Under the pieces are notes generated by a model. It worked only from the letters and a program-made list of their open reading frames with translations, did not search any database and was not told the origin of the DNA. A program made the translations under genes and the position numbers. Positions 23,946-45,677 of a DNA stretch of 64,000 nucleotides are shown here, one piece after another (the stretch's first letter is position 1; each line of letters starts with the position of its first letter). Origin of the DNA: Caldilineaceae bacterium SB0661_bin_34 (GTDB taxonomy: Bacteria; Chloroflexota; Anaerolineae; Caldilineales; Caldilineaceae); the NCBI GenBank assembly GCA_009841145.1, contig VXMJ01000043.1, positions 1 through 64,000 of the forward strand. Direction: 5' to 3'.

Positions 23946-24609
23946 GTGGCGGTACGTCCCGCAGGTGGCCGAGTACCTGCCGCATCACAGGTTTTTCCGG
24001 GTTGTAGCATGCGTACAACTTGCCCTCGGAGAGCGACCACTGCAAGGTCAAGGGGCAAGGGCGCAACCAGCTGCGGGCGGTCGAGCAGAAGCACCGGGCC
24101 AAGGACCACACCCACAAGGCCCATGCCATCCAGTGCAACAACCTTGGACACCAACAGCGGCACCGGCGGCAGACCCTGTACCATAAACAGGTGCGCGATC
24201 ACCTCTGCCAGGCCGCCCATACCGTCGTGGGCAAGGGCATCATGGCGGACGCCCTCACTTCGATGTCTCGCCGTTGGCCTTGGTCAATCCAGCCTACACT
24301 GCGCAAATCGACTCCTGGACGGGCCTGTTGCAGGGCACGCGTCGCGGGGACCGGTTTTACTGTCTCGAAGGGGCTGTGCTGGACGCGGACACCAATACCG
24401 CCTGCAACATTCTGGCGAGGCTGTACCACGACGGGATTGGGTTGTACACGCCCTACCGGAGAGGTGAAAGCCCTGCTCGCGGAACGAACCGGGGCAGCGA
24501 AGGGGACTGTCCGCCCCGGACTCGAGTTGCGGGGGCATGCAACAAAGCCCCCATTAACCGAGAGCGGATGCTCCGCGCCGATGCCGAAGGGTGCCGGTTA
24601 ATAGGAACA
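23946..24609 (+). pseudogene. decayed IS200/IS605-type TnpB (copy 1)
   Basis: Remnant of a TnpB RNA-guided nuclease, readable only by switching frames. From about 24020 one frame gives a basic region and 'KGIMADALTS' (RuvC-II-like position). Another frame from 24274 gives 'ALVNPAYTAQIDSWTG' and 'RFYCLEGAVLDADTNTACNIL', the half zinc-ribbon and RuvC-III aspartate segment of TnpB. A third continues with 'VKALLAERT'. Frameshifts therefore inactivate it. The N-terminal third is not recognisable. Homology with copy 2 (45205-45600, minus) runs to about 24609, which I take as the element's right end, 14 bases from the stop of the ABC exporter gene. No TnpA was found. Confidence 0.75.
24521..24609 (+). 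ncRNA. candidate omega-RNA 3' scaffold of TnpB copy 1
   Basis: The stretch after the TnpB-like frame is shared with copy 2. It can form GTTGC/GCAAC (24526-24530 with 24539-24543) and, interleaved, GGGGGC/GCCCCC (24531-24536 with 24547-24552): a pseudoknot or two competing hairpins. In copy 2 the second helix keeps pairing through a G-U pair. TnpB guide RNAs end at the element's right end, so the ~16-20 bases after 24609 would be the guide. It is probably a relic, because the protein is broken. Confidence 0.45.
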
Positions 24610-24622
24610 TTTCCGCCTCCCC

Positions 24623-26542
24623 CTACAGTACCTCCTCGCATTGAGCCACTATCCGACCGTTGGACAGCACAATTCCATCCTCACAACGGCATTCGATGCG
24701 ACCCGCATCGAATTGCTCTGCGTAGAGGTTGGCGTACAGACCATCCCGGGTCAACAGTTCCTGATGGGTGCCCTGTTCAACGATACGCCCCTGATCGACC
24801 CCAAAGATCACATCGGCGGACATGATGGTGGATAGCCGATGTGCGATGGCAATCGTGGTGCATCGATCCATCAGAGGTTCAAGGGCTGCCTGAACGTAAC
24901 GCTCGCTGGCCGTGTCCAAGGCGGAAGTCGCCTCATCCAGAATCAGGATTCGGGGATCATGGAGGATCACGCGGGCAATGGAGAGACGTTGCCGCTCTCC
25001 GCCGGAAAGGCGATAACCGCGTTCGCCCACGACCGTATCGTAGCCATCGGGAAACTGCATGATGCGCTCATGGATAAAGGCAGCCCGAGCGGCTTCTTCC
25101 ATCTCATCCCGGGTGGCATCCGGGTTGCCGTAAAGAAGGTTGTCGCGCAAGCTGGCATGAAACAGATAGCTTTCCTGTGTGACGTAGCCAACCAGGTCGG
25201 CCAAGGATGCCAGCTGAATGTCCCGCACATCGTTGCCATCAATCAGTACGGCCCCTTCCGTTACATCGTACAGACGGGGAATGAGATACGAGATCGTGGT
25301 CTTGCCGGCCCCGCTGGGACCAATGAATGCCGCCAACTGCCCAGGCTCAATCCGGAAGCTCACGTCGTCCAGTGCCCACCGTTGTTCCGAGTCTCGACCC
25401 TGACTGCCGTGGTCCGTTGCCTCGGCCCGAGCCTCATATTCCAATCGCACCCGGTCAAAGGTAATCCGGCCCTTCACGGCATGACGGTCGAGAGGCAAGG
25501 CGCCAGGCGCATCCACGATCTCGGGCTTGATGTCCAGATAGCCAAATATGCGCTCGAACAAGGCCAACGACGACTGCAGCTCGACGGATACCTGAAGCAG
25601 ACTGCCTATGGGGAAAAACAGACGCGACTGCAGCGTGGTAAAGGCCACGATGGTGCCCGACGTGATGCCCGAGGGAGCATCGCCCCTGAGGAGATAACCC
25701 GCTATCACATAGACCAGAACAGGGGCAAGCGAGAAGAAAATTTGCATCACGGTGAAAAAGGCCTGCCCCGTCATCTGGCGACGAATGGTCAGGTCGGCCA
25801 GACGCTGGTTCTGTCGGTGAAAGCGTTCAATCTCCTGGTCCTGGCGTCCAAAGAGCTTGGCGAGCATGATGCCGGAGATGGACAGCGTTTCCTGGGTGAT
25901 GGCCGTCATGTCCGCCGCCGTCTGCTGGGCCTCCGCCGAGACCGCCCGCCGCCGTGCCCCAACCGTCTTCGAAAGCAGGGCAAAGACGGGCACGGTTGCG
26001 ATGGACACCAACGCAATTTCCCAGGACAGGATGAACATGGCCACCAGGGTGCTGATAAAGACGACACTGTTGGACAGGACATTGGACACCGTGCTGGTGA
26101 CCACGTTTTGGATGCTGCCTACATCATTGGCCACGCGCGACTGGATTTCACCGGTGCGGGTGTTCGTGAAAAAGCTGAGAGGCAGCATCTGGAGATGTGT
26201 ATAGAGCCTGTCCCGCAGATCCCGCATGACCTGCTGGCCTATCCGATTGGTAAAGAGAGTCTGCACAACACCCAGACCGCCGTTCAGCACCGTAATGCCC
26301 GCCATGATGCTGGCGACAAGCCAAAGCAATGAGAGATTGGGCTCCCCTTCGGGTGGGAAAAGCGCCGAGTCGAACACAAACCGAATTAGTACGGGATTCA
26401 CCACCCCCAGCCCGGCGGTAATCAGGATCAGGATGCCGACAAGGCCGACTCTGACCCAGTAAGGCTGGAATGTTCCGGCAATACGATGTACCAGGCCCTG
26501 TCTGGTGGCGACATCCTCAGGTCGTTGGTTGTTGTCATTCAT
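24623..26542 (-). CDS. MsbA-like ABC exporter (transmembrane + ATPase)
   Basis: 639 aa half-transporter expected to act as a homodimer in the cytoplasmic membrane. The transmembrane domain covers about residues 20-320. The ATPase domain has Walker A GPSGAGKTT, signature LSGGE, Walker B LILDEATSALD with its catalytic Glu, and switch His (IAHRLST), so both sites should be consensus, unlike the 1221-5312 pair. A charged insert (about 380-400, EARAEATDHGSQGRDSE) lies at the start of the ATPase domain. The last ~20 residues (ECRCEDGIVLSNGRIVAQ) extend past the usual end. The 3' end lies 14 bases from the TnpB relic. Exported substrate unknown (lipid or drug). Confidence 0.92.
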   Translation of the reverse strand: MNDNNQRPEDVATRQGLVHRIAGTFQPYWVRVGLVGILILITAGLGVVNPVLIRFVFDSALFPPEGEPNLSLLWLVASIMAGITVLNGGLGVVQTLFTNRIGQQVMRDLRDRLYTHLQMLPLSFFTNTRTGEIQSRVANDVGSIQNVVTSTVSNVLSNSVVFISTLVAMFILSWEIALVSIATVPVFALLSKTVGARRRAVSAEAQQTAADMTAITQETLSISGIMLAKLFGRQDQEIERFHRQNQRLADLTIRRQMTGQAFFTVMQIFFSLAPVLVYVIAGYLLRGDAPSGITSGTIVAFTTLQSRLFFPIGSLLQVSVELQSSLALFERIFGYLDIKPEIVDAPGALPLDRHAVKGRITFDRVRLEYEARAEATDHGSQGRDSEQRWALDDVSFRIEPGQLAAFIGPSGAGKTTISYLIPRLYDVTEGAVLIDGNDVRDIQLASLADLVGYVTQESYLFHASLRDNLLYGNPDATRDEMEEAARAAFIHERIMQFPDGYDTVVGERGYRLSGGERQRLSIARVILHDPRILILDEATSALDTASERYVQAALEPLMDRCTTIAIAHRLSTIMSADVIFGVDQGRIVEQGTHQELLTRDGLYANLYAEQFDAGRIECRCEDGIVLSNGRIVAQCEEVL

Positions 26543-43992: not shown

Positions 43993-45195
43993 CTACACAG
44001 CCTGGAACTGTTGCCGGACCATGCCCGTTCCAACCAGTTGCGATAGGAGCCGGTAGTTGCCGGTTTTGTACCTTATCCGGCCGGCAACGATGGCGGGGTG
44101 GATGCCGAGCGAGTTCGCGAAATAGATCACTTTCAGGGGAGTCGGTTCCTCCCAAAGAGTGCTTCTGTCCCAATCAACGCTCGGGATGAGTGCTTCCTGT
44201 GCCCACTCGTCGGCCTTGGCTTCGCGCGCATCGTCACTTGGGAGTTCCAAGTCGTCGACAAAGGCTTCGGAACTGCCGTCAAGGTGGCAGCCTAGGTGCG
44301 CCAGTTCGTGCAGGAGACTGAACCAGAAGTTGTCGATGCGGTCGTAGCGAAGGGTGAGACCAATGACGGGCGGCCTGCCTGGCAGCCAGAAGGCTGCGCC
44401 ATCCAGATGCGTTCTGGGAAGATGATGCTCCACCCGCAGGGCAATCCCGTGGTCGGCCAGGTAGTTCCGCGCGCGAAGCGGTCCATCTTCCGACGGGCTC
44501 AGTCGCGCCACTTCCGTCAGAAAGTCGGGGGTGATGATCCCATGCTTGTATGAAACACCGGGAGGATCGTCGTTCGCGGAGGCAAGCACCTGCCAGCACC
44601 AGGCTCTCAGGGCGTAGGGGTCCGTCTTGGCGTTGATGCGCCGAAGGTTGTTCTTGCGGTAGAGCGGAACCGCGGCGTGAGCATCGGGTCCGCCGGCGCG
44701 TTCGAGGAGGCTCGCCACCAACTCGGTCGCGTGCTTCTTCAAGTCGGGAAGGTCGGGGATCCATGCACGCTTTGCCATCTCCTTCAGGGGGAAGCGCTCA
44801 GCAGCGAGCTCGGCGAGCGACCCATCGTCCTTCGGCACCTGCTTTTGCAGGAGCACGTCGGCGGGAATGCCCAGATGTTCGTGCAGGGCACGCGCCATGG
44901 ACATCGTGATCGAACGCTTTCCCGAGAGCACCTCGGAGACCTTGGCGCGACTGCCGATATAGGGAATTAGGTCAGCCCGGCTCAAGTCCTGCTGGTCCAT
45001 GAAGAACTCTATGGCATCGATCGGATCGGGATCACCGACGGGAAAGTGCCTGTCCTCATAGGCATCGATGAGATCGGCGAGTACATCCAGCTCGTCCTCT
45101 TCAGGTGTCCCCGCGAGTGCATCCATTAGTTCGGCGGCTCGAGCCAGGGCGGCTTCGTAGTCGGCCTCGGTGCGGATGGGACTGACGTTGACCAT
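43993..45195 (-). CDS. XRE-HTH + ImmA/IrrE Zn-peptidase (HigA-like antitoxin)
   Basis: 400 aa protein. The N-terminal ~70 residues resemble the HigA2-type leader (YEAALARAAELMDAL, ...DLIDAYEDRHFPV). An XRE helix-turn-helix follows (MDQQDLSRADLIPYIGSRAKVSEVLSGKR region). The C-terminal half is an ImmA/IrrE metallopeptidase with H296-E-L-A-H300. Such proteins act as antitoxins/transcription factors, usually with a HigB-type toxin gene just upstream. Here that position is taken by the TnpB remnant, whose end is ten bases before the ATG at 45195, so the partner appears lost. The likely ribosome site (AGG ~10 bases upstream) borders the element. Confidence 0.88.
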   Translation of the reverse strand: MVNVSPIRTEADYEAALARAAELMDALAGTPEEDELDVLADLIDAYEDRHFPVGDPDPIDAIEFFMDQQDLSRADLIPYIGSRAKVSEVLSGKRSITMSMARALHEHLGIPADVLLQKQVPKDDGSLAELAAERFPLKEMAKRAWIPDLPDLKKHATELVASLLERAGGPDAHAAVPLYRKNNLRRINAKTDPYALRAWCWQVLASANDDPPGVSYKHGIITPDFLTEVARLSPSEDGPLRARNYLADHGIALRVEHHLPRTHLDGAAFWLPGRPPVIGLTLRYDRIDNFWFSLLHELAHLGCHLDGSSEAFVDDLELPSDDAREAKADEWAQEALIPSVDWDRSTLWEEPTPLKVIYFANSLGIHPAIVAGRIRYKTGNYRLLSQLVGTGMVRQQFQAV

Positions 45196-45204
45196 GACTA
45201 AACC

Positions 45205-45292
45205 TGTTCCATTAATCGGCACACTTCGGCACCGACGCTGGTGATTCGCTCTCGGTTGATGGGAGCTCCGTTGCACGCCCCCGCAACTCGAG
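45205..45292 (-). ncRNA. candidate omega-RNA 3' scaffold of TnpB copy 2
   Basis: Same sequence block as in copy 1. GTTGC/GCAAC (45283-45287 with 45270-45274) is identical, and the second helix is GGGGGC/GCTCCC (45277-45282 with 45261-45266), where a C-to-T change is absorbed as a G-U pair. Retention of both helices supports an RNA role in the parent element. The would-be guide covers the start codon of the ImmA-type gene. Confidence 0.45.
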
Positions 45293-45600
45293 TCCGGGTG
45301 GAGCAGTCCCCACCGACGGCCTGGTTCGTTCCGCGAGCAGGGCACGCACCTCCCTGTAGGGTGTGTACAACATTATCTCCTCGTCGTACAGCCTCGCCAG
45401 AATGTTGCAGGCGGCATTGACGTCCGCGTCCAGCACAACCCCGTCGCAACAGCAAAACCGGTCCCAGCGACAACGGCCCTGCAACAGGCCCGTGCGGGAG
45501 TCGATTTGCGATGTGTAGGCCGGATTGACCAATGCCGGCGCAGAACCTCTGCGCCGAGATATCGAGGTTAGGGTGTCCGCCATCACGCCCTTGACCCAGC
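45205..45600 (-). pseudogene. truncated IS200/IS605-type TnpB remnant (copy 2)
   Basis: C-terminal relic of the same TnpB family as 23946-24609. It reads 'VKGVMADTLTSISRR', 'PALVNPAYTSQIDSRTGLLQG' and 'VVLDADVNAACNILARLY' (the RuvC-III aspartate segment), then 'REVRALLAERT'. Here one frame covers the whole relic, but the N-terminal two thirds are missing. Homology with copy 1 breaks off near 45600 on one side and at 45205 on the other. It cannot encode a nuclease. Confidence 0.75.
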
Positions 45601-45677
45601 CGTTCAGGCGCAGGAGGAACAGAAGGACCAGGAAAGTTGCGCAGTCGCAGCGCGCGCCCCAGTGGCCGTTGCGGCCA

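What the first reader, a model, noticed from the sequence alone, without database searches (positions are those of the whole stretch)
24521..24609. Two TnpB relics share a pseudoknot-capable 3' end
Seen: the 24521-24609 block recurs on the minus strand at 45205-45292. In each, GTTGC/GCAAC is identical, and the interleaved GGGGGC/GCCCCC becomes GGGGGC/GCTCCC, a pairing-preserving change. Known: TnpB uses an omega-RNA whose scaffold lies at the element's 3' end and often contains a pseudoknot, with the guide just beyond. Inference: this is the scaffold of an extinct local TnpB family. An alternative is two mutually exclusive hairpins; zero linker in one helix order makes a full pseudoknot sterically tight.
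Basis: partly seen in the sequence, partly recalled or inferred. Interest (0 to 1): 0.7.

Follow-up and report, generated by a model that had tools for sequence, protein, structure and literature searches.

The report
Decayed ends of a living IS607 transposon
The two matching blocks are the guide-RNA ends of two dead copies of a mobile element that still has complete copies in the same genome; the RNA very probably folds as a long ordinary hairpin rather than the proposed pseudoknot, and the element tends to land in the ribosome-binding sites of genes.

Summary
Observation confirmed: the block recurs (about 82% identity over 167 bp) with the stated helices and one C-to-T (G-U) change. Interpretation only partly right. 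The blocks are right ends of IS607-type elements (serine recombinase plus TnpB) in a Caldilineales-like genome. The family is not extinct: about 22 full-length copies of this right end sit in the host and 16-17 matches in each of three congeners, many on roughly 500-aa TnpBs with an intact D/E/D triad. Empty sites in the congeners fix the boundary at ...GGAACAG, guide just beyond, with an NGGAG target motif (published IS607 TAM: AGGAG). The TnpB ORF runs through the scaffold; there third codon positions lose their excess variation, pointing to RNA-level constraint. The scaffold is real, but not as the proposed pseudoknot. Across 66 copies GGGGGC/GCCCCC covaries; GTTGC/GCAAC does not. Where the readings differ, 10 copies favour the nested helix CTCGaGTTG/CAACCGAG and 1 the pseudoknot stem. 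The pseudoknot known in TnpB RNAs (apical loop with the bases before the guide) covaries in a second IS607 family of this host and is suggestive here. The two relics decay like their coding sequence. The motif resembles a Shine-Dalgarno: 22% of insertions lie just before start codons (control 4%).

The parts
24020..24603 (+). W1: frameshifted, internally deleted C-terminal relic of an IS607-type TnpB
   Evidence: tblastn with the intact C61 TnpB hits two frames; blastn pieces 24021-24236 and 24229-24609 with about 89 bp missing between them; PF07282 at 24274-24411
24502..24612 (+). W1: omega-RNA scaffold relic (stem A, long nested hairpin, terminal hairpin, element end GGAACAT)
   Evidence: alignment of 21 own-genome copies, 72 copies in 4 genomes, folds
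24521..24562 (+). W1: nested hairpin CTCGaGTTG-c-GGGGGC ...
   Evidence: minimum-energy fold -20.2 kcal/mol; covariation counts
24611..24632 (+). W1: former guide region just after the right end
   Evidence: divergence point of all copies; boundary rule from empty sites; inference for this copy
45215..45604 (-). W2: C-terminal relic (130 aa, open) of an IS607-type TnpB, 88% identical to the intact C61 protein over residues 372-501
   Evidence: tblastn; PF07282 E=6e-9
45204..45314 (-). W2: omega-RNA scaffold relic, all helices intact, ending ...TTAATGGAACAG
45251..45292 (-). W2: nested hairpin with GGGGGC/GCTCCC (one G-U pair)
   Evidence: fold -19.9 kcal/mol
45184..45203 (-). W2: former guide GTTTAGTCATGGTCAACGTC, spanning the start codon of the HTH/IrrE-like gene ending at 43993
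   Evidence: paralogous sites without the element in own contig C37 and congener G002:C119; M78 domain

Best explanation
Both blocks are the decayed right ends of one IS607-type family: serine recombinase TnpA, then a roughly 500-aa TnpB, element about 2.1 kb. In intact copies the tnpB mRNA's 3' end is inferred to be the omega-RNA: stem A, a long hairpin CTCGaGTTG-c-GGGGGC...GCCCCC-at-CAACCGAG, a terminal hairpin, and GGAACAG at the element end, followed by a guide copied from the insertion site. The recombinase joins at an AG dinucleotide after (N)GG; TnpB is inferred to cut empty sites that carry NGGAG plus the guide sequence, so that the element is copied back by repair. Shown here: homology, intact relatives, boundaries, target motif, ORF overlap and helix covariation. 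Inferred: transcription, processing, cleavage and copy-back. The two window copies have lost most of tnpB, and their scaffolds decay at the same rate as the coding sequence, so they are most likely non-functional.
For: 57 TnpB-domain matches and 35 right-end matches in the genome. Intact TnpB ORFs of 498-503 aa ending in the scaffold. Recombinase over the IS607 cut-off (NF033518 E=1e-46); no Y1 transposase. Empty sites in congeners matched through the junction at two loci. Covariation: GGGGGC/GCCCCC 9 double-change cells in 3 pairs (0/1000 shuffles); terminal hairpin 26 cells in 4 pairs (0/1000); stem A 6 cells in 3 pairs (1/1000). Slid controls pair only 42-51% of cells against 94.6%. Third codon positions vary most in the TnpB body (0.174 against 0.087 and 0.072) but not in the tail over the scaffold (0.108 against 0.127 and 0.087). 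Relics: scaffold 79% against CDS 82% (W1), 93% against 93% (W2).
Against: No RNA data. In every copy with an intact tnpB, GTTGC, GCAAC and CAACCGAG are all invariant, so the pseudoknot/nested choice rests mainly on variant and decayed copies, and on the tool's own 21-copy alignment the two structures score alike. One copy (C11, L029) favours the pseudoknot stem, and the minimum-energy fold of C77 (L027) is neither. The third-position comparison covers only 33 codons. The TnpB profile score is just under NCBI's guided_TnpB cut-off and the Zn-finger cysteines look incomplete.
Confidence: 0.85

Rival explanations
1. The block forms the reader's H-type pseudoknot (GTTGC/GCAAC with GGGGGC/GCCCCC) as the functional scaffold.
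For: Both helices pair in all intact copies; on A1 the pseudoknot stem pairs in 100% of cells and the two structures score alike. L029 keeps GCAAT (G-U) while breaking the nested helix.
Against: GTTGC/GCAAC shows no covariation (169/1000 shuffles as good; relatives alone 1000/1000). 10 copies break it more than the nested helix, including groups of copies that share the broken form, so such elements probably still moved. RNAfold (5 of the 6 family-1 copies folded) and RNAalifold choose the nested hairpin. Zero linker is sterically tight.
Confidence: 0.13
2. The block is conserved because it encodes the TnpB C-terminus; RNA structure is incidental.
For: The ORF is open through the scaffold to a TAA 9 nt before the end in intact copies.
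Against: Third positions are not freer than first positions there. Amino acids change (EPP, PSP, TPP) while pairs are kept, e.g. GGGGAC/GTCCCC and GGGGTC/GACCCC. Covariation exceeds shuffles.
Confidence: 0.05
3. The two relic scaffolds are kept as stand-alone guide RNAs used in trans by intact TnpBs of the same genome, for example to regulate the gene at the W2 site.
For: All helices are intact in W2; intact TnpBs with the same scaffold are present.
Against: Scaffold and coding relic decay equally. The nearest paralogous site (C37) differs from the W2 guide at 4 of 20 positions and has GGAAG, not GGAG.
Confidence: 0.07

Closest known systems
ISXfa1 (IS607) TnpB and its reRNA (PMC10711439)
   Same: Serine-recombinase element; RNA at the right end extending past the boundary; fixed right-flanking base(s) counted as scaffold; guide from the insertion site
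   Different: ISXfa1 depletes a GGG motif and IS607 elements join at GG; here the shared dinucleotide is AG and the motif NGGAG. The two scaffolds were not compared by sequence here
IS607 TnpB with RAGATH-18-derived RNA, e.g. ISFba1 (PMC11061315)
   Same: IS607 context; TAM AGGAG (18/22 strains) fits the NGGAG left flanks seen here
   Different: No Rfam match here; their reRNA is independent of the coding sequence, here it lies inside the ORF; about 387 aa against about 500 aa
IS200/IS605 TnpB omega-RNA (ISDra2, AmaTnpB; PMC10278001, PMC11061315)
   Same: Scaffold overlaps the 3' end of tnpB; TnpB processes its own mRNA in AmaTnpB, and by inference here
   Different: No Y1 transposase in this genome; integration chemistry differs
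Second IS607 TnpB family of the same host (L004-L008, L167-L186)
   Same: ORF stop at the element end; scaffold embedded in the ORF; apical loop GGGAAT/GGGACT pairs with the end ATTCCC/AGTCCC
   Different: Unrelated scaffold sequence and right end

Membership tests
IS607 family element | Serine recombinase TnpA with N-terminal MerR-type HTH | tested here: met
   PF00239 and MerR_1 in one 215-aa ORF; NF033518 158.6 bits over cut-off 110; next to TnpB at C61, C41, C40, C13 and others
IS607 family element | No target duplication; exchange over a 2-bp identity | tested here: met
   Empty sites show only a shared AG
IS607 family element | GG core dinucleotide, as in IS607 itself (PMC6188088) | tested here: not met
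   LE ...GGAG/, RE ...AACAG/, target ...GGAG/: the common pair is AG, not GG. GG is a property of IS607 itself and some relatives, so this marks a variant and I file it as IS607-type, not as IS607
TnpB RNA-guided nuclease | RuvC D/E/D triad | tested here: met
   VDKG, CEDL and DADxN present in the 15 intact proteins, except one DAEVN in C16
TnpB RNA-guided nuclease | Curated TnpB profile score | tested here: inconclusive
   NF040570 E=3.5e-24 but 85.8 bits against cut-off 100; PF07282 over cut-off
TnpB omega-RNA | Conserved scaffold ending at the element end, guide just beyond, target motif left of the element | tested here: met
TnpB omega-RNA | Transcribed, bound by TnpB, guides cleavage | not testable with these tools
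   No RNA or biochemical data
TnpB omega-RNA | Pseudoknot between an apical loop and the bases before the guide | tested here: inconclusive
   CTG/CAG in most copies, CGG/CTG in subfamily 2; shuffles 66/1000, loop/end association p=7e-5 but not phylogeny-corrected. Second family: fifth pair A-U to C-G covaries
   GGGGGC/GCCCCC yes, GTTGC/GCAAC no
RAGATH-18 reRNA | Rfam covariance model match | tested here: not met
   No match at gathering score in the window; no RAGATH-18 match up to E=1 on five copies

The most novel reading that the evidence does not exclude
An IS607-type family whose RNA-guided nuclease motif is itself the Shine-Dalgarno sequence: insertions separate a gene from its own GGAG and supply a substitute (TAAAGGAACAG or TAATGGAACAG, just after the tnpB stop), so the element occupies ribosome-binding sites with little damage, and its guide spans the start codon of the gene it sits on.
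Probability: 0.3. Interest if true: 0.6.

Novelty: new member of a known kind. Interest (0 to 1): 0.33.

Why it matters
It corrects a misread structure and gives a natural data set: dozens of copies of one scaffold in four congeners, with empty sites, that tests which helices a TnpB RNA needs. It also shows an IS607-type scaffold lying inside the tnpB ORF, unlike the RAGATH-18 group, and a target motif that coincides with ribosome-binding sites.

Tried and rejected
Rfam scans of the window and of five copies: no related family (the Atu_C4 hit, E=0.16 and far below its gathering score, is taken as chance). Plasmid collection: no match. PDB by sequence: no match to this TnpB. IS605 origin: rejected, no Y1 transposase. 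Guide match elsewhere for W2: only a diverged paralogous site. Empty site of the C6 copy: only one flank matched per congener. First alignment mixed strands and was redone. A looser cut for insertion sites gave little difference, the stricter one did. Structure prediction was not run: profile hits and motifs were sufficient.

Full report
WHAT IS THERE. The block at 24521-24609 (W1) recurs on the minus strand at 45205-45292 (W2), as reported. The match is longer than described: 82% over 167 bp, running upstream through the C-terminal coding region of a TnpB and downstream to GGAACAG, where all copies diverge. The quoted arms and the single C-to-T change are correct. One such change between two copies is weak evidence.

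NOT EXTINCT. The genome (4.34 Mb, 102 contigs) has 57 matches to the TnpB C-terminal domain, and 35 matches to this right end, about 22 of them full length. Many sit on intact ORFs of 498-503 aa. Upstream of several intact copies is a serine recombinase that passes the IS607 cut-off. No Y1 transposase was found. The complete element is about 2.1 kb. Three congeners carry 16 or 17 matches each; none of 37 more distant relatives did. Named hits are Caldilineales/Caldilineaceae metagenome bins, plus one contig binned as Acidobacteria.

BOUNDARY AND GUIDE. Joining the flanks of two copies and searching the congeners found empty sites that match through the junction. For C41: left ...TTGTGGAG, right GAATTTCATGAGT; element LE TATGTTGCTAGCAC, RE ...TAATGGAACAG. 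The only sequence shared by left end, right end and target is AG, the inferred exchange dinucleotide; IS607 itself uses GG (PMC6188088). All left flanks read (N)GGAG or AGAG. [quoted passage not shown] So the scaffold ends at GGAACAG and the guide follows.

SCAFFOLD INSIDE THE ORF. In intact copies the tnpB stop codon lies 9 nt before the element end, so nearly all of the scaffold is coding. In the TnpB body third positions are the most diverse (0.174 against 0.087 and 0.072); over the scaffold they are not (0.108 against 0.127 and 0.087). This points to constraint on the RNA itself, on a small sample. IS607 reRNAs of the RAGATH-18 group are described as independent of the coding sequence (PMC11061315).

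PSEUDOKNOT OR HAIRPIN. GTTG can pair with GCAAC (pseudoknot) or with the CAAC in CAACCGAG (nested). GGGGGC/GCCCCC is common to both readings. On 66 distinct copies that helix has 9 double-change cells in 3 pairs and no shuffle as good; examples are GGGGAC/GTCCCC, GGGGTC/GACCCC, AGGGG/CCCCT and AAGGG/CCCTT. The pseudoknot stem has no covariation (169 of 1000 shuffles as good). Neither does the nested GTTG/CAAC part (95 of 1000), which is nearly invariant. Of 11 copies in which the two readings fare differently, 10 break the pseudoknot stem more and 1 (L029) breaks the nested helix more. Some forms with the pseudoknot stem broken are shared by several copies in different genomes, so such elements probably still moved (inference). 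MFE folds of W1, W2, C61, C41 and C45 are all nested; that of C77 (L027) is neither. RNAalifold also gives the nested hairpin, and offers an enclosing helix GGTG/YACC in place of the outer part of stem A. Caveat: in all copies with intact tnpB both options are invariant, and on the 21-copy alignment the two structures score alike. I put the nested hairpin at about 0.8. Why GCAAC in the loop is so conserved is unexplained.

THE KNOWN PSEUDOKNOT. In ISXfa1 and ISDra2 the pseudoknot joins an apical loop to the bases just before the guide (PMC10711439). A second IS607 family in this genome shows that pattern with covariation: GGGAAT with ATTCCC, GGGACT with AGTCCC. In the family studied here the stem-A loop CTG can pair with the terminal CAG, and CGG with CTG in subfamily 2. 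This is suggestive, not proven.

THE TWO RELICS. W1 is frameshifted, with about 89 bp missing. It predates the split from congener G001, which keeps only the last 30 or so bases at the same place. W2 keeps 130 C-terminal residues at 88% identity. Scaffold and coding identity to C61 are equal within each relic (79 and 82%; 93 and 93%), so nothing suggests the RNA is kept for use. W2 sits 8 nt before the ATG of an HTH/IrrE-like gene; paralogs on C37 and in G002 have an uninterrupted GGAAGG/GGGAGG ribosome site there.

INSERTION SITES. 11 of 50 usable copies lie 5-14 nt before an ATG opening at least 130 codons, against 26 of 621 GGAG sites in the window (4.2%; Fisher p=2.6e-5). The cut was set after seeing the first list; a looser cut (30 copies, ATG or GTG, 80 codons) shows little difference (9 of 30 against 22.5%). 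The motif resembles a Shine-Dalgarno, but removal of insertions inside genes could give the same bias; the control does not exclude this.

VERDICT. Real, well explained: relics of a living IS607-type TnpB family, a new member of a known kind, with a misread fold. The ORF-embedded scaffold, the AG core and the ribosome-site preference are points of moderate interest.

Noticed in passing
G000, loci L004-L008 and L167-L186: A second, multi-copy IS607-type TnpB family in the same genome whose apical loop and right-end bases covary (GGGAAT/ATTCCC, GGGACT/AGTCCC); its ORF also ends at the element end.
   Followed up: partly
L033-L038 (G000 C86, C81, C4, C101, C51, C34): Subfamily 2 shares stem A, CTCG/CGAG and GAGAGCGAA but has a different inner hairpin (GCGGCnnnnGCCGC), terminal hairpin CCCCAAACC/GGTTTGGGG and end GGAACTG.
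   Followed up: partly
window 45184-45203 and upstream; L164: W2 interrupts the ribosome site of an antitoxin-like HTH/IrrE gene. At the paralogous site on C37 the preceding ORF end resembles a HigB-type toxin (recalled, not tested); at W2 a TnpB relic stands in its place.
   Followed up: partly
L046 (G000:C16), TnpB RuvC-III motif: One otherwise intact TnpB has DAEVN where the others have DADxN, possibly a change of the third catalytic residue.
   Followed up: no
L213 (JAGWAJ010000097.1): An 85%-identical TnpB lies on a contig binned as Acidobacteria: transfer or misbinning.
   Followed up: no
loop column between GGGGGC and GCCCCC, all copies: GCAAC in the hairpin loop is conserved in all intact copies although the nested fold leaves it unpaired; a contact with GTTGT about 70 nt upstream is conceivable.
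   Followed up: no
G000 C37, C88, C62, C72, C94, C86, C25, C2 ends: Many contigs of the assembly break inside these elements, so copy numbers are lower bounds.
   Followed up: no
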